Positions 20,168 to 59,231 of a stretch of DNA of 64,000 nucleotides are shown here, piece after piece. This stretch comes from Plumapathes pennacea (lineage: Eukaryota; Cnidaria; Anthozoa; Antipatharia; Myriopathidae): NCBI GenBank assembly GCA_964036295.1, contig OZ038468.1, positions 1,758,001 to 1,822,000 of the forward strand, written 5' to 3'. Both the position numbers and the translations under genes were made by a program. Within the stretch, counting starts at the first letter, position 1. Every line of letters starts with the position of its first letter. The notes beneath the pieces were generated by a model that saw only the letters and a list, made by a program, of their open reading frames with translations, made no database searches and was not told where the DNA came from.

Positions 20168-23100
20168 ATGTCATTCTTCGCCCCTGCACTGCATGGAAAT
20201 TTCCGCAATCTCCGCCTTGGTCAGACTTTCAACGTCCAGACATTTGAAAAGGGGATACATCCATTTGATGAGATTTCAAAAGTTGAAGATAACAACAAGC
20301 AATTTGACTGCCAGTGTAAGGTTCTTCACACAAGCGACAACTTTGAAGAAATAAACGACAGCTTTGTCGGCGCCGAAATGTCATTGAAGCTCATTGCAAC
20401 ACGTCTTTCTGGAGGTGTAGGGAGTTCCAAGAAAAAGACAGAGCAAGTGGGCGTCACTGAAGTATTCGTCAATATCAAATGCACAACGGTGGGTTTGCCA
20501 ACTAGTATATATATAATCAACCATATAAAGAGGTTATTACACGGGAAGGAGTGCAATAAGGCGGAGTATTTTTACGAGTCGGTTTTATTTTTTCGAGCCT
20601 GCTTCAGGCGAGAAAAAATAAAACTGACGAGTAAAAATACATCCGTATTGCACGACTTTTCGTGTAATAAATTGTTTATTATACGACAAACGAAAGCAGG
20701 GCAAACGTTCTCGCCGCGCGCAAAATGGAACAAAAAATGACGCGTTCGTAAACTTTTCTTGCGAACATTGATCACGTAAGCTAATAAACCAGTTGATCTG
20801 GTTCCTGACGAGTGCAATACGCTCCCATCTTTGCACTCGTTTTGGCCCGTATTTGCACTCCAAAATGTGAAGTCGTGTAATAAAACGATTTATAAACTGG
20901 TGTATCAACTAAGTGTTGATGAGGGTAATGGAACGCCGTCAAAGAGACAATAGCTGACGTTTCGAGCGCTAGCCCTTCGCCATTTGCTCTGACGAAGGGC
21001 TAGCGCTCGAAACGTCAGCTAGTGTCTCTTTGACGGCGTTCCATTACCCTCATCAACACTTAGTTGATACACCAGTATGTCTTCCGCCACGCCGACGCAG
21101 TCAACCTAGTTCCCTTAAGAGCTGGTATTACATAAATGATTTATGTCATGTTGGTGATGTTTAGAAATTGTACCATACAAAAGTGACGTGAATCAGTTCA
21201 AAAAGACTCTAAACTTATTGGCATCATTTGGGCGTGTGTTCATTTACTCATCCTGGATGTTACTGGTGTTACTGGAACACATACGGTACAAAATAATAAT
21301 TCGTTTGCTCTAAGGCAATCAAATCATGTTCGTTTGGAAAATTAGTGTATTCTATTCCTGAATGGTCCCCCCCCCCCCCCCCCCCCAAATATAACTGGCA
21401 GTGTGTTTCGACATTTGAGTTTACATGTACTAAAAAACGCGCAAAAACAAACAGAAAAGGAAAAGATTGATCCTTTCTCTCGCGCTTGTGTGGTCCTGGT
21501 TTACAAGTAACTTCTATGTGATTGCGCTTGCGTACGTGATTGTGCTCCGCGCATGTCGTATGCGTGTAAACGAGCCTTCAGCAACATCAATCTCCGTTTT
21601 CCTTTCTATTTTTAGGTTACTGAAATAGTAGATGGCGATAAAATTAAGATTAAAGCTAACATCGGTTCCTTCGATCGCGATTTAATCGGAACGCACTACG
21701 TCAGTGCCGTTAAGTATGGAGCACAACTGTCGGCGAGCTTGAAGTTAAAGACTTCGTCAGTAGTCGACAGGTAAGCTAACTGAATCCGTTATCAGAACTG
21801 CGTTCATCTGACGTACTACGATCTGACGTACTAGTAATTTATGACCCATCAAATATTTCCTCCCGCGCGTGATTGGTAGAATCGTGACACGTGACCGAAT
21901 AACGTCCGCTCGTGAGCGGACGTTATCAGCGAATAACCCCCGCCTGGCGAACTAACGCTGTTTATTGACAATATCCGAACACAGTTCTATTTGTTTAGTC
22001 ACAAAAATCATTACAAGACGACTACTGAGGAGGGCACCAATTTATTGGTCAAAAAGCAGTTCCAGAGAGCACTAAAAAGCTTCACAGTTTCCGCGCCGTT
22101 ATTTGTGCTGTGAGAGGAAGTATTTGAAGGATAATAAAGACAATAAACTACTTTTGGCTTCGGAAATATGCACAGATACCATAGTACTAAGAACATAAGA
22201 TTGCAAGATCGCAAGAGACCCATGTACCTCCATCCCACTCATGCACTTAAAGTTTTCTCGGAAAATCTAGTATCTCTGTAATTTGCAGTTATGTATCACT
22301 AATACCGTTATATATATTTTTTGTAAAGTTACGAAAAGAAAGGAGGTATAGGCGGTGGACTGGACGAATTAACAACTGCTAGTGGTGGACTGCAAGCCTA
22401 CTTGAAGCAGTTGTTCGGTGGATGCAAAGATAAAAGTACCATTGACATAAAGTATAGGGCAACGGAACAGCCAGATATGATACCAACAAGCCCTGAAAAC
22501 TTTATGAAACTCGTCAACACCTTTCCGGATAGGCTGTCGCAGACTAATGGAGGCCGTGGAAATCCTTTGGAGGTATGGGCTTGTTGTGTTTTTCATCTCA
22601 AATGCGCTCGCTTCACACCTTCCAAAGCCTGGGTTTTGCGCCAGCGTTCGAGCGGTCGCCGACAATTGTCTGCGATCGTGTACGATCATATGGAAACACA
22701 CCCTGAAAGCGATCGAAAAATATCGTCCCAGAATGTATTGTTCTCCTTTGGTACTATGGCAACGCTAGAGGCTCCGCTGGCTAATATGTGTGTGGTCGTT
22801 CAGTCGGCGATCACACGGTTGAATAGTTCCAGCCATCGTGAGCAATCCCATGGAAACCACTGGTTTATCCACACATGCAAATACACATACACACACGACA
22901 CATGTACGTACAAATTCACATAAACAAATGCATATTTATATTTATATGCCTGGAAAGTGCAAATGAGACATTTTTGTGCTAATTAAGCTCATCTCCAGAA
23001 ATTGTCCGAGCCCAGAATGTATTGACAATGTAGTTACATTTTGTAATAGCCTTCAAATGGGTAAATGGCAAAGATGCTTGGCTGCTTGTGCTCTACTTGT

Positions 23101-26100
23101 GTTTTTTTATTTTATTTTTCATATGGCTTCTCCGTTCACTATTAGTTCGAGCTGCAGACACTTGGGACAGTTGGCATTACACAAGGAATCAAGTACAGGA
23201 AAAACCGGACTTTTGCGCATTTAATGGGGGAATTTAGAGAGCAATTCCATGACCTTTGCTCCTGCTCTGCACATCTGAAAACGTACCTGAAGGAGGCTGG
23301 TAGTTCCAGGCATCCAGATCTCGTGGCGCTTCGCAACTGTACTGACGAGATGCTGCAGAAATTCCACGTGGCTATAAATAATCTTGGCTTTGATGGAGAT
23401 GAAGTTCAATTCCATGAAAGTCGAGAGGCCTACAAAGCAGCAATCAACGGGGAACCAGCACCTGGGAAATTCATGGTCGAAAGGGAGAGACTATTACAGG
23501 TAAGAATGCTTAATAGTCTACACACAAAACACATTGATCCCCGAGACATACGCAAACTGATTTTGTGAATGTCTGAGGCGATCTCCTTCATGTAAAGATC
23601 AACAGAGTGAACACCTTCTTGCACCGCGGGGTCTTTTGGGAATGGCCATTACTTTTTGAATTTTGTTTTGAGAAGTAGAAAGTGAAGCAGATTAAAAACT
23701 TGAAAACCGAAAACGCAACAATCTCACAGAAAAGACCATGTTCCTCTTCAAAAACGTCGAGTTTGACCCGCAAGTCAGTTGGTGAAGTTCGGATCGACAT
23801 AGACGACAACGGGGCTTGACTTCTAGTCTTGATTTGCTCAATATAAAAAATTCAGCTCTGTATTAGGCACGTCTCGTCCCGGAAAGGGCTCGTCACAATC
23901 GCAATTTGAAAACTTCAACAGTGAATGAAAGTAAAGTTTGGACAAAGGAAATGAAATTATCCCAGAATCATTTCCGAGCCTTGCAAGGTACTAATCGCAA
24001 CACACCATTTCGTTTTGAATGTTTGTCGTCGGACGACTGCACCGCAGGGTCTTCTGGGAGTCAATTCCCCACACTGCAGAAAAAAGTTACAACTCAAGAT
24101 ACACGTCCGAGATTTTTCTCTCCTTTTTGTACAATTCAAGCAGCCAAATGCACCGAGCAAACGACGTTGAGTGACAACTGAAAGGAGTTGAAATAGTAAA
24201 GCGTCGCATGAGATACAACTCATCTTGAACATCATTATTTACTGTATAAAGCAGTGATAGACGAAGTGCCGAGCTGCAGGGCAAGAAAAATCTGTTCGGC
24301 ATTCCGACGTTGTTCAAAGTAGAGGATTCTTTGCATAAGCATTTGCTCCATATTCCCCGATTTGTACGAGAATTTTGCCTGTTCGTCTGTCGACTGATTT
24401 CTAATCCTAACTTTGGCGTTTGATTGTTTTAAGGTACCACTATGCCTACATAGAAATTTGTAAAGCCATACAAGAATAAATAACTGGATAGTAGAGTCAT
24501 TAATTCCAATGAAATTCATACCTGTGCTTAATGTGTTAAGAGGGAGAACATAGGCTACAAAAAATTGTCCAGGTAACATTTTTTTTTGTTTTCAGCAACT
24601 TGGTATTGTTTCCAAGATCAAGGTAGGTTACGTTATTGTTTGTTTCTTTGTATTGTCATTCTTGAGCAGCACAGACGTCGGCCTTTTAGGGTGAGAGCTA
24701 GTTAGCACAATGCAAAAAAGTACGGTGCATAAAGTAAAACTGAGTACTTTCGCAACAATTGCAGCAACTTTCAATCGCCGTTGCACCGTCTAACATCACT
24801 CCAGCAACTTCTTTCTAAGCACGACGAGGAGCGCATGCCGCACTTCGTATTCAAACCTTAAAAAATTAATTCTGTCATTTTAACGTGTCGAATTTAGCGC
24901 AAAGTTCCCGATGTGCCAGTCACGAGTTCTCTGCAACCTTCCTCGGTTAATGCAAGTTGCCGAGATTGCGTTGCTTAGTGTAAAACCTCACCTGAGCTAC
25001 TGCAACGACCCCTGAGAAAGTTGCAGTGTTAACCGCGCCTTAAGCAACAGTATAGCGATATACAGATAAAGCAAGTTTAGTACAATGATCTTAAGACGAA
25101 TAAATGCCTTCGTAGCTATTAAACTAGTATCAAATTCGTGCTGTTATTTCAATCGCGAATACGTTCGCACAGTAGAGCAGGTCTTCCCTTGCAGAATCTG
25201 TCGGCTTCCATTGATAACAGAATTCAGAGCTGACGGAACTACCGACGTTAAATAAAATAACTTTACCTTTAATCTGTGAAGAAGAGGTTAACCCAAGACC
25301 CATCCTCACTGAGCAGCTAAAGCGATCTGAGATCAATCCAAGCTGCATGCGAATTGAGTGTGAACAGTTGACGTTTTCTTAATTACTCCTCAGATCGATT
25401 TAATCCCGAAGCAGTTGTTATAGTTAGGTGAAGTAATATTCGTGTTTTCGTATATTCAATAGCTACGGAGAGGAAAACCATTTAAAGCTATTCTCCTTGG
25501 AAAGACTGGAAACGGAAAAAGTTCCACGGGAAATCAAATCATTGGCAAAAATATGTTTACTGTTAGTAACAACGCAACGTCTTGCACAAGACGCTATCAA
25601 GCAGAAGGAAGGAACGCTGACAGGGACATCTGTGTGTTCGACACTCCCGGCTTCATGGGCATGCCAGTTCAAACGATCAAGGCAATCCAGAAAGAGTTGG
25701 ACGAGCATATTGCTGAGCTGAAGGAAGTGCATGTGAAGCTTGCTGGTGGTATCGATGCCTTTCTTCTGGTTGCGCGTTATGGTAGCAGAATTACCGATGA
25801 GGAGTTTAATTCCATGACGATGCCCGTGAAGCTGTTTGGAGAAAAGGCAAAGCAGCACATGATTCTGATCCTTACTCATGGTGATGAAGCCATTCAGATG
25901 GCTCAAGCAGACGGAGTGTCTGTCAACGAAGAGGTTACCAGGTGGCTACAAGGTCTTCCAGATGAGATGAAAGAGTTTGTGTTCCAGGAACTCGATGGGC
26001 GGGTGGTGCTATTTGACAACTCTTCACCGGTTGGTGCAGCGAGCGATGTCCAAGTCAAGCAAGTGGCTCAGTTGGTGGAAACCATTGATGCGATGATGAA

Positions 26101-26236
26101 AGGAAAGGATCCCTTTGTAATAACTCTGAACAAAGACGTATTATGGCAAGTTCTTAAAGCATTAGCTGGCCTGGGTGGCCTGACGCTGTCAGCAGGTGTT
26201 GTTATTGCGGCATTCGCGGGATTGAGACTTCGGTAG
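20168..26236 (+). CDS. gene A: MACPF/SNTX-like, helical and AIG1/GIMAP-type GTPase fusion protein
   Basis: Six exons: 20168-20488, 21616-21770, 22329-22572, 23146-23499, 24596-24622 and 25463-26236, together 625 codons (624 aa). All sites are GT-AG and the frame is open throughout. Residues about 1-240 resemble the MACPF-like N-terminus of the stonustoxin family, with the signature GTHYV at about 132-136. Residues about 241-358 (one exon) are predicted helical, in the position of the FAT-like region of that family. Residues 368-624 are an AIG1/GIMAP GTPase: Walker A GKTGNGKS at about 380-387, DTPGF at about 427, THGD at about 505, the GRVVLFDNS box, and a C-terminal hydrophobic segment (LGGLTLSAGVVIAAFAGL) that could anchor it in a membrane. 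GIMAPs act at intracellular membranes in immune cells, and MACPF regions can form pores or bind membranes. Joint function is inference. The start is the first ATG after a UTR acceptor. AATAAA lies at 26825. Confidence 0.85.
20526..20886. mobile_element. non-autonomous element with TTATTACACG ends (copy 1)
   Basis: It begins AAAGAGGTTATTACACGGGA and ends TCGTGTAATAAAA. An internal hairpin at about 20566-20641 pairs GTATTTTTAC...GGTTTTATTTTTTC with its complement. An inverted copy of the whole unit lies at 59539-59890. The long frames on both strands here are repeat-derived. Confidence 0.75.
20896..21076. mobile_element. 181-base inverted repeat of Penelope-associated type
   Basis: The left arm (ACTGGTGTATCAACTAAG...) and right arm (...CTTAGTTGATACACCAGT) are nearly perfect complements of about 85 bases each around a short spacer. 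One more arm occurs at 5777-5862. The right arm carries an intact hammerhead-like core (see the ncRNA entry). Confidence 0.75.
20986..21019 (+). ncRNA. hammerhead ribozyme-like core with minimal stem III
   Basis: The order 5' to 3' is GCT, CTGACGA (fits CUGANGA), A, GGGC-TAGC-GCTC (4-bp stem II with a tetraloop), GAAA, CGTC, AGC. The outer GCT and AGC pair as stem I, and the expected cleavage is after C21016. Stem III is reduced to the self-complementary ACGT, which cannot close within one molecule but can form between two. Small hammerhead variants of this kind, tied to Penelope-like elements and active as dimers, are known from the literature. Activity here is not shown. Confidence 0.65.
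21840..22175. mobile_element. repeat element in intron 2 of gene A (inverted copy at 61145-61443)
   Basis: It starts TATGACCCATCAAATATTTC and runs to TTGAAGGATAATAAAGACAA. The same sequence in reverse orientation is found at 61145-61443. Copy 1 contains an extra small hairpin GTCCGCTCGTGAGCGGAC. Confidence 0.65.
22573..23145. other. intron 3 of gene A
   Basis: Non-coding; it contains a short CA-rich stretch near 22870-22910. The acceptor at 23144-23145 (cactattag) is followed by the FELQ codons that match the start of exon 4 in genes C and D. Confidence 0.6.
23500..25462. other. introns 4 and 5 of gene A around a 27-base micro-exon
   Basis: The micro-exon 24596-24622 (QLGIVSKIK) is flanked by ttttcag and gtaggt. 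It is supported by equivalent micro-exons in genes C and D at the same position and phase. The rest is non-coding. Confidence 0.7.
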
Positions 26237-28318: not shown

Positions 28319-28449
28319 GAAAGCGAAGGCTTCAAGGTCAAGATATCCCGTGCGCGCATTCGGAATTTAAAGTCTAAGTGAAAGCACCCCATACTCTCTA
28401 TTGGCATCTAAACGGAAAGTTCGTCACTGTCCGATCAGCAGTTGAGAAG
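28319..28449 (+). promoter_or_regulatory. degenerate copy of the ISRE-like/first-exon module
   Basis: GAAAGCGAAG at 28319-28328 differs by one base from GAAANNGAAA. The downstream phrase CGATCAGCAGTTGAGAAG|GTAAGG gives a strong donor, with the intron starting at 28450. It lies 1.4 kb before exon B and could serve a transcript that uses it. Confidence 0.3.
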
Positions 28450-28771
28450 GTAAGGAAGACAAGTACGAGGATCGCGCAACAAGCCGGTGTTAGCGTAAGA
28501 TGAGTAGCCTCATAAATATATATCGTGTAGTTGAGTTGTGCGCGCGATAGAACTGTTGTCCTTCGCAGTGAACTAATGGTAGACCGAAATAATACACATC
28601 AGAGGCGGTCTGGGCTAGGAAGGAATTACTGAACCAGTCAGGACAAGAACAGAAGCGAAGACATGTTTTCTTCTTGACGTCATTCAAGTTATTCAATAGA
28701 CTCTTTCATTATAACTAGCATTATGATTATAAAAGACTTGCAATATACAAGTCAGTAAAATGTATGGAAGT

Positions 28772-28857
28772 GGAACCTCGCTATAACGAAACACCGTTAT
28801 AACGAACACATTTTCCCAGTCCCTTGGCCTTTGTTATATCGAGGTTTCACTGTACTG
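28772..28857. repeat. short pogo-like terminal repeat pair
   Basis: AACCTCGCTATAACGAAACA and TTGTTATATCGAGGTTTCAC face each other within about 85 bases. Related pairs recur near 32190-32270, 33790-33870, 36445-36520, 38045-38135, 40925-41000 and 51020-51090, always inside the duplicated units. Confidence 0.65.
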
Positions 28858-29851: not shown

Positions 29852-30646
29852 CTACGACCAGGAAAACCACTTACGGTTCTTCTCCTTGGGAAAACGGGAA
29901 ACGGAAAAAGCTCAACAGGAAATCAAATCATTGGTAAAGAAACATTCCTTTCAAGTGACAGCACCAAGTCAACTACAAACCGTTATGTAGCTGAAGAAAG
30001 GAAAGGCGACAGAAAAATCTGCGTGATCGACACACCCGGGTTTATGGGCATGCCAGTTCAAACACAATCGGCTACCAAAAAAGAGTTAGACCAGCATGCC
30101 GCTGAGGCGAAGGAACTGCATGAGAAGCTTGTTGATGGTGTTGATGCCGTTCTCCTGGTTGCACGTTACGGCAGCAGAATCACTGATGAGGAGTTTGAGG
30201 CCGTGATGATGCCCATGCAGCTGTCGGGGTTTGGAGAACGAACAAAGCAGAACATGATTCTTGTCCTAACTTATGGTGATCAGGCCATTCAGAAAGCTGA
30301 TAGAGAAGGCGTATCGGTCGACGAAGTGGTCGACAGTTGGCTAAAAGATCTTCCAGATAAGTTGAAAGAGTTTGTGTTCAAGGAACTCGATGGGCGTGTG
30401 GTGCTGTTTGACAACTCTCCGCCGAAAGTTGGTACAGCGAGCGAGATCCAAGTCAAACAAGTGGCCTTACTAGTGGAAACAATTGATGCGATGATGGAAG
30501 GAAAGGAGCGCTTTTTCATAGAGGACATGTCCGAAGGCGAAGTATCGCAATGGCTTACAAAGATTTGCATATTAGGTGGCCTGCCGTTGAGTGCAACTCT
30601 TGTTTTGTTGGCCATTGTGTTTTCTGCTAAACCAAAACTCCCTTGA
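29852..30646 (+). CDS. exon B: orphan AIG1/GIMAP GTPase exon (alternative last exon or gene remnant)
   Basis: After the acceptor ttctttag at 29844-29851 an open frame of 265 codons runs to the TGA at 30646. It aligns end to end with the last exon of gene A: LRPGKPL start, GKTGNGKS Walker A, DTPGFMGMPVQTQ, VARYGSRITDEEF, LTYGDQ in the G4 position, GRVVLFDNSPP, and a hydrophobic tail (LGGLPLSATLVLLAIVFSA). It enters in phase 0, exactly like exon 6 of gene A, so exon 5 of gene A could splice to either. No MACPF, helical or micro-exon lies between 26236 and 29851. It is either an alternative terminal exon giving gene A a second GTPase domain, or what is left of a separate gene. The intact frame argues for use or recent origin. 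AATAAA at about 31317 may be its poly(A) signal. Confidence 0.7.
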   Translation, partial: LRPGKPLTVLLLGKTGNGKSSTGNQIIGKETFLSSDSTKSTTNRYVAEERKGDRKICVIDTPGFMGMPVQTQSATKKELDQHAAEAKELHEKLVDGVDAVLLVARYGSRITDEEFEAVMMPMQLSGFGERTKQNMILVLTYGDQAIQKADREGVSVDEVVDSWLKDLPDKLKEFVFKELDGRVVLFDNSPPKVGTASEIQVKQVALLVETIDAMMEGKERFFIEDMSEGEVSQWLTKICILGGLPLSATLVLLAIVFSAKPKLP

Positions 30647-31866: not shown

Positions 31867-31968
31867 GAAAGTGAAAGCATTCAGTTCGGTCTGAAGGTGA
31901 GGAAGCTTGGCGCACTCAGACGTACTGTCATGTAAACGGAAAATTCGTTTCCGTCCAGCAGCTAGAAG
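31867..31968 (+). promoter_or_regulatory. ISRE-like motif plus first-exon module (unit 1)
   Basis: GAAAGTGAAA at 31867-31876 is a canonical IRF site. CTGAAG|GTGAGG at about 31896 and CCAGCAGCTAGAAG|GTAAGG (intron from 31969) are potential donors. Confidence 0.4.
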
Positions 31969-34900: not shown

Positions 34901-35039
34901 ATAAAACATAGCGTAATGTGAAGTAACGACGCACCTGGGGCCGTATTTACCAACCTTGCGTACGAACAAAAATGTTCGTAAGTATGACTTACGCATCGTA
35001 AGTTCCACTTACGCATACTCTCTCGCGTAAAGCCGCGAT

Positions 35040-35225: not shown

Positions 35226-35485
35226 GGTCAGCCGTTTTCCCTCTGAATGAACAGGCTCAAGCTTTTGCAGCATTCAAAATGGCAACCAATGAAAAGCAAT
35301 GAGAACAAGGCTGTATCGGGTGATGAAGAAAGTAAAATTAAACAAAACAAAACAGATAGCGGCTCTTCTGTTCACATAAACAGCCATGTTTGTCATGTTT
35401 TTGCCGAGGCGTTGTTTTCACACAAGCTGTAGCTCGCCCGAGCGATTGCGTTATTTCAGGTCAACTATCATGCGCTCTCTCGTGA

Positions 35486-43983: not shown

Positions 43984-44397
43984 AGCGAGAGCACCATGAA
44001 CAAAAACGAGCCCGGGAGTAACTTTAAAAGAAAGCGCAAAATAGCCCAGTGAAATCCGATAACTGCAAAATAGCCCGTTAGGTGACAGCTGAAGTCAAAA
44101 CAGTAAAAAAAAAAGGGTCGCACAAGATCATCTTGAACTCATATGATTAATTTATCCTCCAAAAATGTCGAAGTTTTGGTTATGCTTTTGAGTGTTCTTT
44201 TTCGAAGGTAAGAAGAACAGTTGATGAGCGCACTAGCACCCTAAGAAAAGGTATTTCATCCTTCAAACCGGGACGGATCGGTACCCATTACGTCAGTACG
44301 GTAACGTATGGAGAAGAACTTGTGGCGACCATGAGATTCAAGAATTCGTCGATAACCAGCAGGTATGTTCACGGATAAACCTATGCGCAATATGTAG

Positions 44398-44633: not shown

Positions 44634-47600
44634 CAGTAAAACCCAGGCAATCGCTAAAATAACAATATGGCGCTTGTGTTCAACCCGAATGCCCTTTGAA
44701 AAATATCACCAAGGAACTGAATATACTGAGCCTAAAATAAATTGAATTAATTTTTAACATTATTTGCTATGACATCCGCTGATAAAAGTAAGCGGTATAA
44801 GTTGCTTTGAAGTGTGCAGTCAGACCAATGTAACTGCAATTATTAGCGTTTCTTTGATTCGGGGGAGCCTGGGAAATTGCATATACACACACACTAGGAA
44901 ATCGCGTAATAATTTATGTATATTGAATTTTTTCCTGGATAGATTTGAAACTACAGCAGACATAAAAATTGATTCGACTGAAGTCACTGGTGGGATCAAG
45001 GGTCATTTTGAGAAGGTCTTCAAAGAGTGCAGGGACAGAAGTGACATTGAGATTCAGTATTATGGAGCGGGCCAGCCACAAATGAGATCGACAACCCCTG
45101 AGGGTCTGTTGGAACTCATCGAAACCCTTCCGGAGAAGATCAAGGAAATTCATGAAGGTCAAGGAGTTCCTGTTAGGGTGCGTTACGATTTGAAGTTACT
45201 GTTAGATTTCCTTCGCTTATCAAAACAGTTAGCTTGACCTCTAACTAACGGTACTTTTCTCATCGCGTGCAAGCCCCACAATTTACAGCAGCGGTGCATG
45301 GGGGCCTGAAAGTACAGTACTCTCGCATTACAAAACAAAATAAAAGTAAAGAGCCTGGAAACAAGGATGGCCAAATCCAACCTGCCATGGGCTGACTTGC
45401 TCCATGCAATCGCAAAAAACGGGCAGACCGAGCCAGCCCAGCTAACCGAATCAGCCCGCCTCGTGTAATCAGGCCCTCACAAAAGAATTATTTGAAGCTG
45501 TCGTTTAAAATATGCAAAATTGATTAGCTGGGTTTTCGCAATTTATAATATGTAATTTTTCCCCCAGCTGGAATTGCAACCAATCACAAACATTGGCACT
45601 GGTCAACTGGGGATCGGATACAGGAAGAATCCAGACCTGTTGCCTTATATGGAGGAATTCGAAAAGCAGTTCCAGGACCTGCAGTCTTGCTCTGCTCATA
45701 TGACAACGCATCTACAAGGCGGTGGAGATCGTCCTCCAGATTTCGAGGACTTTTACGACTCCACTCTAACGGTTCTACAACAATTCAAAGTGGCTATAAA
45801 TCAACTTGGATTTTTTGGAGATGAAGGTCCATTCCATGCCAGTCTAAAGGCCTACGAGACAACACTGAAAGGGAAGTCGACACCAGGGAAATTTATGGCC
45901 GAGTGGGAGAAGATGATGCAGGTAAGAGCATTATCCCTAAAGCGAATTGAAGAGCTCTTCAAGGAAAATGCAACCTAATTATTTCGAAGATCACCTAATC
46001 TTTCATGACCACTCAAAAAAATAGTTTTATGGAAGGAATATAGTGATACAATCAGCGTAATCACACATGTCCAGTACACCCACGCGAGTCCAACGGACAA
46101 GGGGGAAATTCAGTTTGACCGTCGGGAAATCACAAAGCCATTTTGTTGATGCTTTATCAATAACCAAACTTTCCCATGGGGCACGGGTTCTCTTATTGGG
46201 CCTCCGTCTTTAAGCCTTGGTCATACAAATGCAACGTTTCATTCAACATCGTTGGGTTCTGCTGCTGTTGCGGAGGGGTTTGGCCATGTTGGGTTAGTTT
46301 ACATATCAATCAGCCTCCGAGTTTTCTTCATCTGTCTACTTCCTCGTAGTCTTTGACACTTTTCTTGCTTTGCCAATTCCCCTTTTTCTCTTTCTACTTT
46401 TTGATGAACTAGACTCTTTGGATATTTCACTCCAATAATCAACTTCTTTTGCATTTATTGCCATGATCTTGCAATAACGTACTTATCTTCAATCTTTTCA
46501 GAAACATCGTACTGTTCCGAAGATAGAGGTAGGTTATGTTCTTGTTTTGTTGCTACAATTTTTGCTTAAAAGATATTCATTACCTTGTATCCAGCGTAAC
46601 CTTAGTAGAGGGACTGCCCGCTTTGACTGTATTTCCAAACGCTTTCGACGTAAGAAATAAGGCAAACCTGTTATATACAGACGAAACTGACTTTGTCTAC
46701 GCCCAGATGAGCAAATAGCTTTGATATTTAAATTTGTTAAACCAAGAAAGAAATATGTAGCAGTTGTTATATATCGTGAGGCACAGTAATATTCGTGTGT
46801 TCGTTTATTCTACAGCTTCAAAAAGGAAAACCAAGGAAACTTTTTCTCTTTGGGAAGATGGGCAACGGAAAAAGTTCCGCAGCAAATCATATAATTGGCG
46901 AAAACAAATTCGCTACTAATGACAGCGCAACATCATGCACAAAGCGTTACCAAGTCGAAAAGAGGACAAGCGACAGAGAGATTACCGTGATAGACACTCC
47001 TGGCTTTATGGACCCCTCGGTTAACATGGAGATAAAGAAACATTCAAATGAGCTGAAGGAAGTAGCTGAGCAGCTTTGCAGTGGTATTGATGCTCTTCTC
47101 CTGGTTTCACGTTTCGCGAGAGAATAACCCCTGAGGATATCGAGTCCATCAAGAAGCCTTTGAAGTTATTCAGAGGTAACGCAAAGCAGCACATGATTCT
47201 TCTGCTTACCCATGGTGATAAAGCCGTTGGCAAGGCTCAGAGAGAGAACATCCCTGTCAAAGAAGTGGTCAACAAGTGGCTCAAAACCCTCCCAAAACAG
47301 GTGGCAGAGTTTGTGTTCAAGGAACTCGATGGGCGGGTGGTGCTGTTTGACAACTCTCCCCCGAAAGTTGGTACAGCGGGCAAGTTGCAAGTCAAACAAG
47401 TGGCCGATTTAGTGGAAACCATTGATAAAATGATGGAAGGAAAGAAGCCCTTTGACATCAGCCAGCTCAAACTAGAGGCGACAACCCTTGCAGACAAATT
47501 CAAGATGCCTCTCAAAGAGCTGGAGACAAAAGTAGGCAAATGGACAGGCTTAGAGGGACGCATCAACCTCGTCATCCTTGGTGCTGCTATGGTTGCTGGT

Positions 47601-47794
47601 ATCACCGTCGGAATTGGAGTTGCAGGGCTGTTATGGTGGCTAGTAGCGCCGTGTGGTGTGGAAATTGGAACAATAGCACTAGCGACCTCTGCAGTATAAT
47701 CTGCACCACTATCAAAGTAGGATTAGTTGAGTTGTTGTACCGTAAGGTTCCGAAAATAATGGCACCCCGAAAGTAGCAACCATACGAAAGTAGC

Positions 47795-49680: not shown

Positions 49681-50722
49681 TTGTTTGAACACAAACTATC
49701 ATGGACTATCATAAACTATCATTTGATTTGAAGATGTTCAAATTTTCCATGATAGTCGATGATAGTTTTCTTCGTTTGATCACGCGCATGATAGTCTATG
49801 ATAGTTTTTCGGTCAGCCGTTTTCCCTCTGAATGAACAGGCTCAAGCTTTTGCAGCATTCAAAATGGCAACCAATGAAAAGCAATGAGAACAAGGCTGCA
49901 TCGAGTGATGAAGAAAGTAAAATTAAACAAAACAAAACAGGTAGCGGCTCTTCTGTTCACATAAACAGCCATGTTTGTCATGTTTTTGCCGAGGCGTCGT
50001 TTTCACACAAGCTGTAGCTCGCCCGAGCGATTGCGTTATTTCAGGTCAACTATTATGCGCTCTCTCGTGAGCTAAAGTGCTACACTGTACCAATAATTCG
50101 GTCTGCATGTTTAGAAATCCAATATCAAATAGCTTAATAAAGTGTTCTTGTTACTAGTAAACGTCATATGTAACTCCTTGTCAATTCTGTTTTTGACCTT
50201 TGCTTGACAAAGACAATCTAATCAGCTTGTGTTGTTCGGGCTTGACGTCAATTGAAACTGGATACTATACGTGTTCAAAAGAAACGAAGCGGAAGACCTT
50301 GGGATCGTGTTTTTTTATTCCACTGACCAATATCAATATTGAAACAGCATCTAGCTTACATTTAAAGTATTATAAGTAGACAAGTCAAATAGCACAGCCA
50401 AATACTCGACCTTTTACTGATTTGTGTGCAATTTAAATCAGCGCGCGCTGTTTGACTTCGAGCCCAACTCGATAAACACACAGCATTACCATCACTGAAA
50501 TTATACATTTGTTACCTTTCTATCATATATGTGCGCATCTTTCCCCCTTCCGCCTAAAGAGAAATGCAAGAAAACAAACACTTGCGTGTGTTTGTATGTG
50601 TAACTGAGCATGCGCGTGTCATACTTCTGAATCAAAGCGCGACCTTCTCGCGCGGACACCGATGCGATGGCTGACATCGTCGCGCGATGATTCAATGCCC
50701 CCAAGATATCCAATTCCATATC

Positions 50723-50814
50723 GAAAGTGAAAGTATTCGGGTAAGGAAGCTTGGCCCACTCAAACGTATACTGTCATGTAAACGGGAAATTCGTTTTCGT
50801 CCAGCAGCTAGAAG
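50723..50814 (+). promoter_or_regulatory. ISRE-like motif plus first-exon module (unit 4)
   Basis: GAAAGTGAAA at 50723-50732; CCAGCAGCTAGAAG|GTAAGG, intron from 50815. Confidence 0.4.
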
Positions 50815-51924
50815 GTAAGGCCGGGAGACAGTTAGGAAAACGATGAGTGCGGGATTATGCAAAAGAGATGTAGCTACGTAAATGTCGTGTAGCAGACCGC
50901 AGCTTAGAAAACCACTTGAGTAATGGTAGGAGGAGATACAATCTCGGTACCACGAAAACCCTAACGCAGCAAACGATATTCTTCAGCCCGTTTACAGCCC
51001 AGTTACAGTAAAATGTATGTGAGCGGAACCTCGCTATTATAACAAAACCCCGTTTTCCTAGTCCCTTGGCCTTCGTCGTATCGTAAAAGGAACACCCATC
51101 GGAGCTGTTCCGCAAAATATGTGTTCCACACAGCATCCTGTGCTGGCAGGCGTTTCGTTTTTTCTTCACTGTTGGCTGAGCAAAATAGCACTCATTTCGG
51201 GCTGCTGGCAAAACTGAGTGTTGGCCGAAAAACATGTATTCTAAAGCCTGGAAGCAGCACTTTATTATTTCCGGCTGGAAAAAATATGTGATTTTGATTA
51301 GTTGCTGGGAGATTTTTCTGGGGCTGCTCTGCTGGTAAATGGACATTCAATAGCCTTCCTGGGAATGTGGAACACCTTCGTGTTTGCCAGCAACAGAACA
51401 AAAGCCGAAAAGAACTATTTTTTGGAAAGCTATCCGTTGTATTTACACAAGGAAATGTATTTTGAGAAATACCCTCGTTGGGTGCTCTCGTCGTAACACG
51501 CAATCGGGGTTAGTAAGCAGTTGCTGAGTCAATTAGAAAAGGAACAACAGCTTTTCAAAGCTTTTTTGCGCTTAACTTTTAATGGCACAGCATATGGATT
51601 GACCTCCAACCGAAGACGTGTATTCAGTACATGCAATGTGTTCAGTTCACAAACGAAAAGCCTCGTGCATCTTTTTATCAATATAACAGAAAAGCTAATA
51701 AAGCGAGACCTCTAAGGAATGAAAGTAGAAAGAAAGATTTTGGTCGATCGCAAAATTAACCTCCTTCTAAAAATATTAAAGCTTCCACACAGGTAGTTAT
51801 TGCCCCCTGGTTCCGGCTTAAGAAATGCTCAGAACGCAAGCCAGGTAATTGAATACGCCAAGCCGGATGTCAGACTTCTTAAGTGCGGTAAAGATCAACA
51901 TTCCAATCGGTTTATATTCGAGTG

Positions 51925-52012
51925 GAAAGCGAAAGCTTCAAGTCCAAGAAGCTTGGCATACAGTCTGCAAACATGTAAAAGAAAAGAATGGCTTTCGTTT
52001 AGAAATTGGAAG
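51925..52012 (+). promoter_or_regulatory. ISRE-like motif plus candidate first exon of gene D
   Basis: GAAAGCGAAA at 51925-51934 is followed by TTTAGAAATTGGAAG|GTAAGG (intron from 52013). The gene D acceptor at 53383-53385 is 1.4 kb downstream. The GAAAGCGAAA core is the same as in the module upstream of gene A. Confidence 0.45.
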
Positions 52013-53386
52013 GTAAGGAAGAGCATGCCAAGGCGATATAGGGGAAGCGTTAAGCGGCAAGCGCATTACGCACTCACACTATTTGTTATTTTCTCGATTC
52101 ATCTCGGGCGGTGTCATGCTGAGACAGGGTTTTCCCCACATGCCTTGGAGTCAGTCGGTTAGTTTCGCTTTTGCGTGTTGTTCTTACATGTACGAGTGTT
52201 GGGACGTTCAATTCACCGCTTGCCAATATGTTTATAAGGTACAAATGAGGAAGTGGCATTGACGAAGCTACCTCAAATTTACATGTGAGATGAATTGAGA
52301 AAATAACAATTAGAAAGTTGGGCTGGAAGTCGAAGGCGACAACCTCGTGAGACAATGTAACATCAAATTGTGGACTAACAAATGCATCGGTCGGGAATAA
52401 GTGAGGCGTTGTTCAGTAAAATACGATGAAGGTGAATGTTCCTCCTTGGATGCGTGTGTGAGTTAGAATCTAGGATGTCGGCATGCCCAGACCCGCTTTC
52501 ACTTCGGTCACCCGCGGCGTAATCTAAAGTCGTAAATTTGCTGTTTTTCACCCATTTTTGTCGCATATTGCTCAAATTTGCTCTGTTAGGGTGCGTTCGA
52601 TTTGACTGTATTGCCAAAAATCAGTTACAAATAATAACAAACGAGTTGAAACTATATCGAGTAAATTAGAGGTAGCTTTATCAATGCCACTTCCATTTGT
52701 ACCTAACACATTGGCAAGTGGTGAATTAAACGTCGCAACACACTCGTATATGTTAGAACATTACGCGGAAGCGAAACTAACTGACTGAATCCAAGGCATG
52801 TGGGGAAAACCCTGTCTCAGCATGACACCGCCCGAGATGAATCGAGAAAATAACAAATAGAGAGTTGGGCTGGAAGTCGGAGACGGCAACGTCGTAAGAA
52901 AATAAGATTGAATTGTGGACTAACAACTGCATTGGTCGGGAAAAACCGCAACAGGCGATAATCCCTATTTTTTTCGCAGGCTAACACATTAACACATTTT
53001 TGTACTATCAGCTTGCAGTAGACTGTTCTTCTAAACAAATTTCTTATTCGTCTCAGTGTAGCAATCTAGAGTCCTCTTCTCTGAAGACAAAAAAAAGAGT
53101 TTTGTAATATTTTCTTAACCATTGCACAATTCAAGTGCCCGAAACTGGCATGAATCATGTTTCGTGACATTATCAGCTAAGCTGGGCAATCAATTCCGTA
53201 AGCCCACGTTTACAGGTTCTTTTGGGGCTTGGGGCTGGGGGCCCGTTTTGTTGGCCGTTTAATACAACAGTTACTGTTGTCGAGATGTGACCGTTGTAGG
53301 GAGCTAGTGGCATTAGTGGAGACTGCAACAACTGACTTTTCCTGATTTGCGATCCGCAAGCCTCTTATTTTTGTTTCTGTTGCAGG

Positions 53387-56300
53387 ATGTCTATTTACGT
53401 CTCTGCCCAGGACGAACCGTTTTGCAATCTCGTCCTTGGACAGACGTTCAACGCCAAAACATGTGAAGAGGGTATTCATGCACTAGATCCGGGATTTGGA
53501 ATACAAGAGAACCGTGTCAGTAACAGCGTCTTTCAGTGTAAGGAGGTCAAAACTTACACAGATATTATCGACATTTTGGACGTCTCCAGAGACTTTTCTT
53601 TGAAGATTGCGGCGGGTGTTTTTGGCGGTGGTGTAAAAGCGAAATATCTCAAAGAAAGAAAAGAAAAAAAGGATGTCACTGAATTTCTCGCATGTGTAAA
53701 ATACAGAACGGTAAGCTTGCCAGAAACAACCTAACAAATAGATAGCCGGCAAGAACAACACTCTTTTATTCGTACTTCACATTCTAGACTATTTACATTA
53801 CATATTACGTAAGTAACTAATTTTTAGTCAAAAAATGGGCAAAATGGAAAAACAGCCTACCTGGGCCCTGGTGAACTTTTTCATTTTACCCGCACAGTTT
53901 TTGTTCTCCCTGGTGTACTTTTTACCTCCCCGGTGGAATCTCAATAAAACACACATAGTATTTACATGTATAAATAATGTATAAATAAGAAACTTTAACA
54001 ACCTAGTTGAAATTTTCTGACCTGGCGAAGTTTCTGCCAAAAATATGTGAACATCCAGATCTCACCTGGTCTGTTACAGAGGGGTGTTCTATATCGTCTG
54101 CGTTATCCTTCGGTGATTTTGAAACATAAAGAAGCCCTTATACAGTTAGAAAAACCTAATCTCCATTGCATTGAGTGCCCGCGGCGGTTTTGTCAAACTT
54201 GGATCATCCTGTAAATGGTCAAAGGTTGAAATTCGCCACGGTTATTGTTCGATTTCCACCGACTGTATTTTGCTTGTCCTTTCTGAAGAAGTATCCGATT
54301 TTTAACACAAAGTTGGTGTCTGGGATTGTGTTCAGGTCAGCTTTAGTCGATGTCTTAAAGAAATTGTTTCATTTCTTTTACGACTAGCAACTTGCCTCCC
54401 ATGCAATGGCAAAATATCCGGGACGTTTACAGCCGCCGTCGATTTGCTTGGCCTTGTATCTGCATCTTGTTGTACAAATCAATGCCGTCGGTATTCCATC
54501 GCTTTGAATGTGAAGACTTAGCCACCGCGCCTAGAATTCGTACGCCAGACAGACTGACTGACTGATTCGAATGGCGACCCACTTGGAGTCTCAAAAAACA
54601 TCATTAGCGTCGTGATTATTAACCTCGCAGAGGTTAATATATCAAAAGAGAGGCTATCCATAGTTGGTATACTACTCTAACCAAAGACGAACTGCAAGAA
54701 AATTGCACAGTGTAGCAGTGCCTATAGTATGCAAATGATTGTAAGCATCCTTTGTTCCATAGGTCACCGAAACAATTGATGATCGGAAGATTACTCGAAG
54801 AAGTGACCTTTCATCCTTCAAACCCGAACAAATCGGTACTCACTACGTCAAAACCGTCACTTATGGAGGACAAATGATAGTTTCCATAAAGTCCAAGAGT
54901 TCGTTGGTAACCAAAAGGTATCATCCAAGTCATAACTAAAATATTAAGTAAGTTTGGATTAGTCTAAACAAGTTTAGCAGCATTTTATAGCCTCATCAGA
55001 AACAAAAGCAAAACCCGATTGCGATCTGCTCACGCAAACAAGCAAGTAGGTAGTGATGGCGTTTCGGCGTACTTCTGATTGGTCTGTTCTAATCAACGTA
55101 AAACCAATTACAGATTACTTTCATTGTCTTCTGATTGGTTGGAAGTGTTTTCTTGCAGCTTTTGTGATTGGCACTGTAATTACTTTGGTTTTGGTTTTAC
55201 GAAAGCTAGCAAGTTACTCTCTCTCTTATTTTATTGGTTTCATGCAAATCCCCTATACGCATCCAAAGAAAGGTCTTGACTATTAATAACTCTGTTTGCT
55301 TTCTGAAGATTCGAAATGAACGGTGAATTTAGTGGCTCACTTGACGGTGTATGTGGAAGACTCAAGGCTCATTTGGAAAAGTGCTTCAATGAAAACCAGA
55401 ATGCAAGTGACCTCGAAATATACTGCTACAACTGCGGAACGGATGAACCAGTGATATCATTAACTCCTGAAGGTCTATTGAAGGAAATCGAAACCTTTCC
55501 TAAGAAGATGAAGGCGGCCGATGGATATCCAGGAGTTCCTATCAAGGTATGTTTTAAATTGAGGTTTTACCTTTTCACTCCCGAGCTCAAATTGCAGATT
55601 CTCAGCCAAAATCATGTATTAGTGGTTTAGTGAGAGTTGATAGTTCAATAATTAGGTATCAAAAGACGAGTTCTTATTACTGCGTGATATATTTCTGGTG
55701 AGAAACTGAAGGAGAAAATGGAAGTTGATCATCTTATTGTAGATTGTCCTAGCCTTATAACAGGATAATGCATGAGTGGTGTAGTGAGAGTTGATAGTTC
55801 AATCAGCTTTCATCTGAATTAGGTATCAAAAGACGAGTTCTCCATACTGCGTGATACATTTCTGGTGAGAAAGTGAAGGAGAAATTTGAAGTTGATCATC
55901 TGATAGGTGCTGAGATCGGTATCAAAGTTGCACTGGCATGTACATGCCTGCCCTTGGGTGTGTGTCAATTAGTGGTAATGAACAGATACTGCCCAAACCG
56001 TCTGCTCGGAATCTTGGTGCCACGTTTGATCAGTGCTGCAAAATGGTGGAACATGTAAAAAAAGTCTATAAAACGTCTCAGTACCACCTAAGAAACACTT
56101 CGAAAATCACGAAATACCTAACTAAGGAGACTACGGAAACTCTCGTTCATGCGTTTATCAGTTAGAAACTCGACAATTGTAATTCTTTGTTGTATGGTCT
56201 TCCTAAGCAAATGATAAGTAGTTTACAGTCTGTGCAAAACACGGCTGCCCGTATATTGTTACAGTGACCAGGAAATTTGACCATATCACCTCTGTATTGT

Positions 56301-59231
56301 TTCAGCTTCATTGGCTGCCTGTCCACTTTCGGATTGATTTTAAAGTTTTGTTGTTAGTTTATAAGGAACTGAATGGCATGGCGCCAACATATATTAAGGA
56401 ATTACTTAGTATCGCACATGCGCACGTTCGTTACGCTGTGCCGATCAGCAGGAATTTCTAGCTGTTCCGAAGTCAAGACTTAAAACATATGGAAATAAGG
56501 CTTTCTCCATTGCTGCACCAAAACTCTGGAATGAGCTGCCATTGTATCTCAGACATACTTCCTGTATTCATTTATTTAAGAAACATTTAGACTACGTTTA
56601 CACTAGAGCAAATGTATTCGGAATCATAAATGTTAACAAATTCATCACATGCGCTTACACTATACTGTAGGTGTATTATAATTCTATTCGTCTATATGAA
56701 ACGATGAATCCTAGAAATATGTGTGCACGGCTGACCATACAAATAGTCGGATTTGTCGAGAAACCCCGTTTACACACACAAAAATGTTTCGGATTTGTAG
56801 TGTCCGGATACAATGTTTCCACTTGTACTGTTCATACTTGGCTCGCATTTAGCCGGATTTTCCTAATAGGCAAATTAACTCAAATATTCTTAATGTGTTA
56901 TTTTTGTGTTCAGTTATTAGTAAACTTGTAATGTGTAGCTATTGGTAATAGAGCTGTACTGTGTTGTCTTTACGCCTAAGATCAAGGTACAATCACACCG
57001 TTGCTTTGCCACAATTCTGGGTCCGAATACGCTTACCCATCTTATTTAGTTACTTTTTGCTTATTGGTAGCTCGGGTTGCAACCGCTGGGATACATTGGC
57101 GTGGAACAGGGAATCGCATACAGAACAAATACGGATCTTACGCGCTTTATGCAGAAATTTCAAGACCAGTACCATGACGTACGGTGCTGTCTTGAAAGTC
57201 TGAAGGAGGGCGTTGACAGTGATGACTGCCATGAGGATATTCTGACCCTTCACAACTTCGCTCAAACAGTGGTGGACCAGTTCCACGAGGCTCTTAGCAA
57301 GCTTCATTTCGTTGGAGACGAAGTTTCATTCCATGCCAGTCTAAAAGCCTACGAAGAAGCCCTCGATGGGAAGCCATTAACAGGGAAATTCATGGCCAAA
57401 TGGAGAAAACTTTTGAAGGTATCACGACGCTTCCCCCAAAACCTACCGTAAAAATGTTCATGTTTATCACAGCAATCATACCAATATCCCATTAATTTAA
57501 TCTAAAAGTTACTCTAACTTGTTCTAGTCTACATCATCATCGCGTTTTTCGCACTATTTCTTATCACTTTTTCTTTATGCTTTCCAAGCATATATTTTTT
57601 GGTTCTTACAATGTATATATATGCTTGAAAAGCATGAAGATTATAAATTTTCAATCCGGAGGTGCATCGGCGGACTTTTAAACGAGAAACGAGCGCGAGA
57701 AGAAAAGTGCGAACAACGCGATGATGATTAAATAGACTAAAGCAAGTTGGAGTAACTTTTAGATTAAATTTATGGGATAGCTGTATGATTGTGATCAAAA
57801 TGAACACATTTACCTAATTTGTCATCAATTTATGGTTTTTGTTTAGAACTTTAAACAGTTACATACTTTTCATTTCAGCGCCATAACATTGTTGTCACCA
57901 AGAGCAAGGTAAGCAATGTGCGAATGTCGCTTTTACTACTTTACCTAGGTCCTGATTGGTTCCTCAGTTATACTTCTTGCAGTGAAACTTCTCGTGAGCA
58001 ATCGCCGCGTGTTTCTTTCACCCTGTATATCCACAAGATATGATCAAGATTACAGATGGTCACTTACAAGTGCTCAATAATATCCTATGCTTGTCTATAT
58101 ATTTGCATTATAATCATAAAGCAAGAACAATCGCTTATGGGAGAAGCCTGGGGAATACAGCTGTCACCCGTCGTGCAGCTTCTAAGGCCTCAAAAGTTGC
58201 CATACGAATGACGGCTGTATTTGCAGGCTATTACGGGAGGTTCCATGTCATTATTGTTAATATTGTTTTACTTGTAGCAGCTGCCAGAGGGGAGGCCATA
58301 TACAGTCTGTATCCTTGGAAAGACTGGAGAAGGAAAAAGTGCAACTGGTAACCAGCTGCTTGGTGGTGAAGGTAGATTTAAAGAAAATGACAGCGCGGCC
58401 TCAAGTTCCGGATGTTGCGAAATGAAAGAAAGAAAGAATGACAGAACCATTCGCGTGATTGACACTCGCGGAACAATGGACACAGCGACAGCGAATATGA
58501 AGCCTCGTCAGCGAAATGATAAAGAAATTATAAGTCACTTGGACGCACTGGAGAGAGCTTTTGAAGAGGCCGGAAACATCCATGCCTTTCTTTTGACCTT
58601 GAAGTACGGTGCCAGGTTTGACAGTCATGAATCTGAAGCCTTGGAGCTCACCCGCCGAGTACTGGGAGAAGTCACTAGTCACACAATTATTGTTCTCACC
58701 CACGGCGACGAGGCGAAAAGGATAGCCAAACGAGAAGGCAAGCCCGTAAAGGAAGTGGTGAACCGTTGGTTGATAAGTCTGCCAAAAGACGCGCGTGACT
58801 TTGTGTTCTATGACATTAAGGGGAGAGTGGTTCTGTTTGACAACACACTGGAAGAAGGAAGCGAGGGCCAAGTCGAGCAAATTACTCAGTTGTTGGAGAC
58901 AATTGACGCCATGGCAGACGGAGAGCCCTATGGAGCCCAGAAGCTGAGGGTATGTGGGGAGGAAAAGATTAAAACCACCCTGGAAAAACTTGACTCGAGA
59001 ATAAGCGCCCTTGAAAGGATCGAAAGAAGGTTCAGCGGACAGCTTGAAGAAGAAAAAGTGATAATGAATCTACTGGAATCACTGAAAAAGAGGAGAAGGA
59101 AACTGAAAGAGTCGGTGTTGACAAAAAGGAACCCTTTCCTTCAATTATTTTTATGTCGTTTATATATTCATTTTTATGAATATTTCCGTATGAAAAGACT
59201 ACAAAATTTTGCAGAAGCAACTTTCCTTTAG
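53387..59231 (+). CDS. gene D: MACPF/SNTX-like, helical and AIG1/GIMAP-type GTPase fusion, divergent tail
   Basis: Exons: 53387-53710, 54763-54917, 55309-55546, 57071-57418, 57879-57908 and 58278-59231 (or from 58281), 681-682 aa. The order and phases equal gene A. Exon 2 again has GTHYV; the micro-exon is 30 rather than 27 bases. The GTPase exon has Walker A GKTGEGKSATGN and LTHGDE with KGRVVLFDNT, but the G3 motif reads DTRGT instead of DTPGF, which may alter switch behaviour. The tail replaces the hydrophobic anchor with a charged, probably coiled-coil stretch (EKLDSRISALERIERR, LLESLKKRRRKLK) and an aromatic end. The last intron ends in tagcag, a tandem NAGNAG acceptor that would add or skip one glutamine. 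Intron 3 holds a dead LINE and two tandem duplicates. The start is the first ATG after a UTR acceptor (gttgcag). AATAAA lies at 59283. Confidence 0.83.
55640..55910. repeat. two-copy tandem repeat shared with the intron before exon B
   Basis: TTAGGTATCAAAAGACGAGT occurs near 55655 and 55818, each followed by CTGCGTGAT, TTTCTGGTGAGAAA and AAGTTGATCATCT. A diverged copy (CTGTGTGATATATTTCTGGT) lies near 29783 just before exon B. Confidence 0.65.
55940..56600 (+). pseudogene. degenerate LINE fragment, C-terminal RT region, in intron 3 of gene D
   Basis: Frames read LGATFDQCCKMVEHVKKVYK, YHLRNTSKITKYLTKETTE, KLDNCNSLLYGLPKQMI, LHWLPVHFRIDFKVLLLVYK and later AAPKLWNELP. These are the typical 3' part of jockey/CR1-type reverse transcriptase ORFs. 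An in-frame TAG at about 56163 and a frameshift near 56260 show it is dead. It is the opposite end of the ORF compared with the fragment at 7690-8530. Confidence 0.85.

What the first reader, a model, noticed from the sequence alone, without database searches (positions are those of the whole stretch)
20168..59231. Tandem family of MACPF/SNTX-like to GIMAP-type GTPase fusion proteins
Three genes (A, C, D) share a six-exon structure with exon sizes 321-324, 155, 235-244, 348-354, 27-30 and a long last exon, all in matching phases. Seen directly: GTHYV signature in exon 2, Walker A and GIMAP motifs in exon 6. From family knowledge: stonustoxin-type proteins carry a MACPF-like region followed by a helical FAT-like region; GIMAPs are immune GTPases. 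Joining the two in one chain would couple a membrane-active module to a GTP switch, a plausible cell-autonomous defence system. I do not know of a description of this as a system.
Basis: partly seen in the sequence, partly recalled or inferred. Interest (0 to 1): 0.87.

Follow-up and report, generated by a model that had tools for sequence, protein, structure and literature searches.

The report
Perforin-like domain fused to immune GTPase
A cluster of animal genes appears to join a pore-former-like domain, distantly related to stonefish toxin and perforin, to an immune-type GTP switch in one protein, a combination I could not find described and whose function is untested.

Summary
Copies A, C and D have the six-exon structure described, with the stated sizes and phases and 15 of 15 introns GT-AG. 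A (624 aa) and D (681 aa) are open end to end; C's GTPase exon is frame-broken; B is a lone, intact GTPase exon. Exon 6 is an AIG1/GIMAP GTPase (Pfam E 2e-32 in A, 7e-24 in D, 5e-32 in B), and none of the four copies has an in-frame ATG before its P-loop, so each probably needs splicing to upstream exons. Exons 1-3 are MACPF-like: profile hit to stonustoxin alpha, E 4.7e-5, with stonustoxin beta and Toxoplasma PLP1 next; Pfam MACPF stays below cut-off in all three copies. The FAT label for exon 4 is not supported: helical, no significant match. No signal-peptide-like N-terminus was seen; the tails of A, B and C are hydrophobic. Best reading: a cytosolic, membrane-tethered MACPF-GIMAP effector. 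The architecture is well supported; the defence mechanism is inference. Taxon and transcripts could not be tested; no relative of the fusion was found.

The parts
20168..20488 (+). gene A exon 1 (MACPF-like part 1; ATG)
21616..21770 (+). gene A exon 2 (GTHYV)
22329..22572 (+). gene A exon 3 (end of MACPF-like region)
23146..23499 (+). gene A exon 4 (helical region)
24596..24622 (+). gene A exon 5 (27-nt micro-exon, phase 0)
25463..26236 (+). gene A exon 6 (AIG1/GIMAP GTPase, hydrophobic C-terminal tail, stop)
   Evidence: AIG1 E 2.1e-32; tail KD 1.94
29852..30646 (+). B: solo GTPase exon with the same acceptor and phase as A exon 6; possible alternative last exon of A
   Evidence: AIG1 E 5.1e-32; 64% identical to A; no in-frame ATG before P-loop
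42908..43228 (+). gene C exon 1
44208..44362 (+). gene C exon 2 (GTHYV)
44943..45177 (+). gene C exon 3
45568..45921 (+). gene C exon 4 (helical region)
46502..46528 (+). gene C exon 5 (micro-exon)
46816..47699 (+). gene C exon 6, GTPase broken by a frameshift around 47112-47126; the second piece keeps a long open frame and a hydrophobic tail
   Evidence: AIG1 E 1e-19 and 2e-8 for the two pieces searched apart
53387..53710 (+). gene D exon 1
54763..54917 (+). gene D exon 2 (GTHYV)
55309..55546 (+). gene D exon 3
57071..57418 (+). gene D exon 4 (helical region)
57879..57908 (+). gene D exon 5 (30-nt micro-exon)
58281..59231 (+). gene D exon 6 (AIG1 GTPase, DTRG in place of DTPG, long tail without a strong hydrophobic stretch)
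   Evidence: AIG1 E 6.6e-24

Best explanation
A local family of animal genes encodes single-chain proteins with an N-terminal MACPF/SNTX-type domain (exons 1-3), a helical linker (exon 4), a micro-exon hinge (exon 5) and a GIMAP/AIG1 GTPase (exon 6). In A, B and C the GTPase ends in a hydrophobic tail. Shown by sequence: the gene structures, the open frames of A and D, the GTPase, and a distant MACPF match. Inferred: the protein is cytosolic and tethered by its tail to an internal membrane. GTP-driven GIMAP-type assembly would bring MACPF units together, so that they disrupt or coat the membrane of an internalised microbe or a damaged organelle, as a cell-autonomous defence. Architecture about 0.85 likely; MACPF fold about 0.8; this mechanism about 0.3. 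The single figure given below is for the fusion with an intracellular, membrane-linked role, not for the full mechanism. B is a spare GTPase cassette, either an alternative last exon of A (about 0.45) or part of a gene whose 5' exon I did not find.
For: Open reading frame through six exons in A and D, 15 of 15 GT-AG introns, and no in-frame ATG before the P-loop in 4 of 4 exon-6 copies. AIG1 well above the Pfam cut-off in A, B and D, and above it in both C pieces searched apart. The profile of exons 1-5 against the PDB ranks stonustoxin alpha (4.7e-5), stonustoxin beta (0.0072) and Toxoplasma perforin-like protein 1 (0.11) as its top three of 177,635 sequences, aligned across the GTH motif; the alpha and PLP1 matches both end at profile position 245. 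C alone hits stonustoxin alpha at 1.2e-4; D alone ranks it first at 0.037. Pfam MACPF is weakly matched at the same place in 3 of 3 copies. No hydrophobic N-terminus (best 19-residue mean 0.02-0.52 over the first 29 start positions of A, C and D), but stretches of 1.94 (A), 2.47 (B) and 2.35 (C second piece) in the tails. dN/dS below 1 between copies: A-B exon 6 0.45; exons 1-5 0.38-0.60 (ratios).
Against: MACPF rests on one clearly significant family of hits: a reversed C sequence reached E 0.0082 by chance (no reversed control was run for the profile), full-length A gives no SNTX hit at E up to 1, and no SNTX-specific Pfam family (recalled to exist) appeared. The exon-1 fragment gave no usable fold (pLDDT 33). 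Exon 4 has no significant PDB match by fold or sequence. D lacks a strong hydrophobic tail, so one tethering model does not fit all copies. dS values are high, so dN/dS is rough. No transcript, protein, localisation or relative of exons 1-5 in another species was seen. C is broken.
Confidence: 0.55

Rival explanations
1. The N-terminal MACPF-like region no longer forms pores. It serves as an oligomerisation or sensor module, and the protein works as a GIMAP-type scaffold on vesicles or lysosomes. (Shares the fusion with the best explanation; differs in mechanism.)
For: MACPF resemblance is weak and below the Pfam cut-off. Exons 1-5 keep dN/dS below 1 but are only 38-45% identical between neighbours. 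Many MACPF proteins are not lytic (established knowledge, recalled).
Against: Segments aligned to SNTX, the run up to KYL and the GTH strand, are retained in C and D.
Confidence: 0.35
2. Two neighbouring gene families with unlinked transcripts: a short SNTX-like gene (exons 1-4) followed by a GIMAP gene, only looking like one gene.
For: Solo GTPase exon B exists without exons 1-5. The exon-6 region shows other paralogue affinities than exons 1-3.
Against: No in-frame ATG before the P-loop in 4 of 4 copies (other start codons not examined); conserved in-frame micro-exon 5 and GT donors at the end of exon 4 in 3 of 3 copies.
Confidence: 0.08
3. The N-terminal region is a novel domain unrelated to MACPF and only GTHYV-like by chance; the proteins are GIMAPs with a lineage-specific N-terminal extension.
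For: Pfam and A-alone searches are not significant. No homologue of exons 1-5 was found in a database of 5.8 billion proteins at the word sensitivity and length limits. A reversed control gave E 0.0082.
Against: Profile E 4.7e-5 to stonustoxin alpha and MACPF chains in all of the top three places; stonustoxin alpha also first for C and for D searched separately.
Confidence: 0.15
4. A venom component of the stonustoxin type.
For: SNTX-like transcripts are listed as putative venom parts in cerianthids (PMC7460484, passages).
Against: The SNTX thioredoxin and PRYSPRY parts are replaced by a GTPase, which needs cytosolic GTP; hydrophobic tails in A, B and C.
Confidence: 0.04

Closest known systems
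Stonustoxin / SNTX family (MACPF/CDC-FAT-thioredoxin-PRYSPRY; PDB 4wvm)
   Same: N-terminal MACPF-like region of similar length (240 aa in A; residues 1-265 in SNTX, PMC8704401 passages) followed by a helical region of about 118 aa (FAT is residues 266-385); profile match E 4.7e-5.
   Different: No thioredoxin or PRYSPRY domain found; a GIMAP GTPase stands there instead. FAT itself could not be shown.
GIMAP/IAN (AIG1) GTPases, including coral GiMAPs of Acropora millepora (PMC3723955, passages)
   Same: AIG1 domain with G1, DxxG, T[HY]GD and RVVLFDN motifs; tandem clustering; hydrophobic C-tail in A, B and C as in some vertebrate GIMAPs (recalled).
   Different: The three immune-induced coral GiMAPs are described as small proteins without C-terminal extensions; four others carry a Hint domain. 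None of the passages read describes a MACPF-like N-terminus.
Multi-domain AIG1 proteins of snail (PMC7053062) and lancelet (PMC12373286), passages read
   Same: AIG1 joined to other modules (CARD/death domain, Hint, ARM, kinase).
   Different: No MACPF or SNTX partner is mentioned in the passages read.
Toxoplasma perforin-like protein 1 (PDB 5oup)
   Same: MACPF region aligned over profile positions 129-245, third-ranked PDB match (E 0.11).
   Different: Secreted parasite protein without a GTPase (recalled); the E-value alone is not significant.

Membership tests
GIMAP/AIG1 GTPase | AIG1 domain above Pfam PF04548 cut-off (27 bits) | tested here: met
   A 112.6, D 84.9, B 111.4 bits; C pieces 71.2 and 34.3
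GIMAP/AIG1 GTPase | G1, G3 (DxxG), G4-like TxGD and G5/IAN motifs | tested here: met
   All present in A, B and D; D has DTRG. Motif forms compared with PMC7053062 passages
GIMAP/AIG1 GTPase | GTP binding and GTP-dependent dimerisation or scaffold | not testable with these tools
   needs protein
MACPF/CDC superfamily | Pfam MACPF PF01823 above cut-off (21.5 bits) | tested here: not met
   12.6, 15.0 and 16.0 bits in A, C and D
MACPF/CDC superfamily | Significant profile match to solved MACPF/CDC chains over the domain | tested here: met
   Stonustoxin alpha E 4.7e-5, positions 35-245; a reversed C sequence reached 0.0082 with no MACPF chain among its 4 matches
MACPF/CDC superfamily | GTH-[FY] signature followed after 6 residues by G | tested here: met
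   GTHYVxxxxYG in 3 of 3 copies; the signature itself is recalled
MACPF/CDC superfamily | MACPF fold | tested here: inconclusive
SNTX family | Four domains MACPF-FAT-thioredoxin-PRYSPRY | tested here: not met
   No thioredoxin or PRYSPRY match in A or D at E up to 1; AIG1 in their place
SNTX family | FAT-like four-helix domain after MACPF | tested here: inconclusive
   Exon 4 helical (core blocks pLDDT 78-84, mean 57.8); best Foldseek E 1.9, best sequence-profile E 0.072 to syntaxin
Defence system | Induction by microbes or effect on infection | not testable with these tools
   no expression data at hand

The most novel reading that the evidence does not exclude
A GTP-switched pore-forming effector: a membrane-tethered GIMAP GTPase whose assembly on target membranes arms a covalently attached MACPF/SNTX domain, with exchangeable GTPase cassettes (solo exon B; mosaic exon 6) supplying alternative switches or addresses to one pore module.
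Probability: 0.25. Interest if true: 0.87.

Novelty: new variant of a known kind. Interest (0 to 1): 0.62.

Why it matters
Pore-forming MACPF domains and GIMAP GTPases are both immunity-linked, and how MACPF pores are switched on inside cells and what GIMAPs do on membranes are both open questions. A natural single-chain fusion would tie the two together and can be tested directly with one purified protein (GTP-dependent oligomerisation and membrane leakage). It would also show stonefish-toxin-type domains in a probably intracellular, non-venom setting.

Tried and rejected
Considered and set aside: (1) FAT label for exon 4. AlphaFold2 with 3 rows gave helices but low overall confidence; of 116 Foldseek matches at E up to 10 none reached 0.001, the best being E 1.9 (50 rows seen); the exon-4 profile found only weak syntaxin-like bundles, best E 0.072. 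(2) Exon-1 fold: pLDDT 33, uninformative, not searched further. (3) The 31-41 kb repeats as hidden coding genes: no family exons inside them, and no Pfam match at E up to 0.1 for the two ORFs tested in or near repeat copies, 31777-32121 and 51797-52159. They are treated as non-coding duplications. (4) Rfam (gathering thresholds) and ARAGORN scans were empty. (5) Protein database: C exons 1-5 and D residues 1-365 found nothing, and full A (only the 7997 candidates sharing most words scored) found 29 GIMAP-type proteins, best alignments covering 21-40% of the query. (6) Mosaic signal: exons 1-3 favour C with D (59 CD-only against 29 AC-only sites), exons 4-6 favour A with C (82 AC-only against 39 CD-only; Fisher p 7.5e-7; exons 4-5 against 6 do not differ, p 0.11). 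Unequal rates could also cause this. Synonymous distances in exons 1-5 do not put C and D closer (dS 0.88-1.07), while exon 6 sets D apart (dS 1.78 or more against 0.55-1.05 among A, B and C), so a separate history for D's exon 6 or conversion among A, B and C is favoured but not shown. (7) Neutrality of B: substitutions-only simulations kept the frame open in 86 of 2000 runs from A and 46 of 2000 from B at 0.14 changes per site; 178 and 147 at 0.10; 23 and 9 at 0.20. This is modest support for selection.

Literature: nine searches of open-access papers showed no description of a MACPF/SNTX-AIG1 fusion in the titles and abstract starts listed (listings capped: 20 of 50, 15 of 16, 12 of 41 and 15 of 94 papers) or in the passages of the eight papers opened. 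No paper was read whole. Ellisdon et al. 2015 (PNAS) is not held. Subscription papers and preprints were not searched.

Full report
WHAT IS THERE. Gene A has exons 20168-20488, 21616-21770, 22329-22572, 23146-23499, 24596-24622 and 25463-26236 (624 aa). Gene D has exons 53387-53710, 54763-54917, 55309-55546, 57071-57418, 57879-57908 and 58281-59231 (681 aa). Gene C has exons 42908-43228, 44208-44362, 44943-45177, 45568-45921 and 46502-46528, then an exon 6 that starts at 46816 and loses its frame around 47112-47126. All 15 introns in A, C and D are GT-AG, and the entry phases agree. B (29852-30646) is an isolated, intact GTPase exon with the same acceptor position and phase as A's exon 6. Neither tblastn nor a family profile in six frames found exons 1-5 for it. 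The profile scan found each of exons 1-4 exactly three times and nothing else below E 0.8; the micro-exon 5 is too short for it. With A alone as query, exons 1-4 of C and D are found in order at E 5.3e-5 or better.

ONE CHAIN OR TWO GENES. No transcript data were available. The sequence favours one chain. A and D stay open across five junctions. A 27-30 nt phase-0 micro-exon lies between exons 4 and 6 in 3 of 3 copies. In 4 of 4 exon-6 copies the frame has no ATG between the preceding stop and the P-loop (other start codons not examined), so the GTPase probably cannot start within its own exon with the P-loop intact. B must then also be spliced to something upstream. Its phase fits exon 5 of A, which would make it an alternative last exon, but this is inference.

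DOMAINS. Exon 6 is AIG1 (PF04548): A 112.6 bits, B 111.4, D 84.9, C pieces 71.2 and 34.3, cut-off 27. The best solved relatives of A are GIMAP4, 7, 1, 2 and 5. In a tree with 19 AIG1 domains from 18 of the 29 proteins (fish, molluscs, others), A, B and D form one clade (100/99). Exons 1-3: Pfam MACPF is matched below its cut-off at the same place in all three copies. C alone hits stonustoxin alpha at E 1.2e-4, D ranks it first at 0.037, and full-length A does not find it at E up to 1. The three-row profile gives stonustoxin alpha 4.7e-5, beta 0.0072 and Toxoplasma PLP1 0.11 as its top three of 177,635 sequences, aligned across the GTH motif. A reversed C sequence reached 0.0082 with a designed protein, so only the alpha hits of C and of the profile exceed noise by themselves; the agreement among MACPF chains is the further argument. 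Exon 4 is predicted helical (helices 21-51 and 57-79 with the better confidence, mean pLDDT 57.8) but matches no solved fold significantly and no FAT domain by sequence. Its place and length match the SNTX FAT domain (residues 266-385; PMC8704401, passages), and no more can be said.

LOCATION IN THE CELL. None of A, C and D has a hydrophobic N-terminus (best 19-residue mean 0.02-0.52 over the first 29 start positions), while stretches in the tails of A, B and C reach 1.94, 2.47 and 2.35; D's best stretch is 1.03 and lies in the MACPF-like part. This suggests a cytosolic protein, tail-tethered in A (and in C and B if read), and not a venom protein. No signal-peptide program was run. SNTX itself also lacks a signal peptide (recalled), so this point is not conclusive.

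EVOLUTION. Exons 1-5 are 38-45% identical pairwise with dN/dS 0.38-0.60; A and B exon 6 are 64% identical with dN/dS 0.45 (dS near 1 is rough). Neutral simulations without indels left B open in 2-4% of runs at 0.14 changes per site, and in 7-9% at 0.10. Sites shared by only two copies favour C-D in exons 1-3 (59 against 29 A-C) and A-C in exons 4-6 (82 against 39 C-D), Fisher p 7.5e-7. Unequal rates remain possible; synonymous distances set only D's exon 6 apart. Together with solo exon B this suggests that the GTPase exon moves or converts partly on its own.

SURROUNDINGS. A unit of about 4.25 kb, apparently non-coding, is tandemly duplicated between B and C (31253-40603, 92%), with a part upstream of D (49683-51054) and a sub-piece upstream of B (28342-29100). 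Each exon-1 ATG follows a pyrimidine-rich AG after one base, so a 5'-UTR intron is likely. The duplicated units may hold promoters or 5' exons; this was not tested.

HOW IT MAY WORK. From established knowledge (recalled), MACPF proteins act when many copies assemble in a ring, and GIMAPs bind GTP, dimerise and assemble on intracellular membranes. A fusion would let nucleotide-controlled GIMAP assembly gather MACPF units on one membrane. I think defence against internalised microbes, or damage control on endolysosomal membranes, is most likely (about 0.3), because both families are immunity-linked and three coral GiMAPs rise more than 50-fold after MDP (PMC3723955, passages). A non-lytic scaffold role is about as likely (0.35).

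COMPARISON AND NOVELTY. It meets the AIG1 test. It works at most like a MACPF and is not an SNTX family member (no thioredoxin or PRYSPRY). AIG1 proteins with other partners are known in snail and lancelet (PMC7053062, PMC12373286, passages), and SNTX-like transcripts in cerianthids and nemerteans (PMC7460484, PMC4986456, passages). No MACPF-AIG1 fusion appeared in the listings of nine searches of open-access papers (four of them capped) or in the passages of eight papers. Protein searches found none either, but no named cnidarian protein was among the 29 hits and the method needs exact words. I rate it a new variant of a known kind. The taxon was not established, and the own-genome search was unreachable in nine tries.

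Noticed in passing
window 31253-40603, 49683-51054, 28342-29100: A unit of about 4.25 kb is tandemly duplicated (92% over 5.2 kb of alignment) between B and C, with partial copies upstream of D and of solo exon B; apparently non-coding, possibly 5' regulatory.
   Followed up: partly
window 20150-20168, 42890-42908, 53370-53387: In A, C and D the exon-1 ATG lies one base after a pyrimidine-rich AG, suggesting a conserved intron in the 5' UTR.
   Followed up: no
window 20523-20894 and 59531-59901: A 370-nt element in intron 1 of A is 96% identical, inverted, to a copy just downstream of D; next to it a 181-nt self-inverted stretch at 20896-21076. Looks like mobile elements.
   Followed up: no
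window 55700-56700 and 7798-8310: Stretches that read by eye like LINE reverse-transcriptase relics, one inside intron 3 of D; Pfam gave no match for the 7798 ORF.
   Followed up: partly
window 8764-11089, minus strand: Three open frames of 96-190 aa (8764-9336, 10304-10594, 10595-11089) that look like pieces of one coding region; the two longest have no Pfam match.
   Followed up: partly
window 13739-14163: A nearly pure trinucleotide (ATT/AAT) repeat of about 400 nt.
   Followed up: no
window 58455-58475 and D exon 6: D's GTPase has DTRG where A and B have DTPG, and D's synonymous distances to A, B and C are larger in exon 6 than in exons 1-5.
   Followed up: partly
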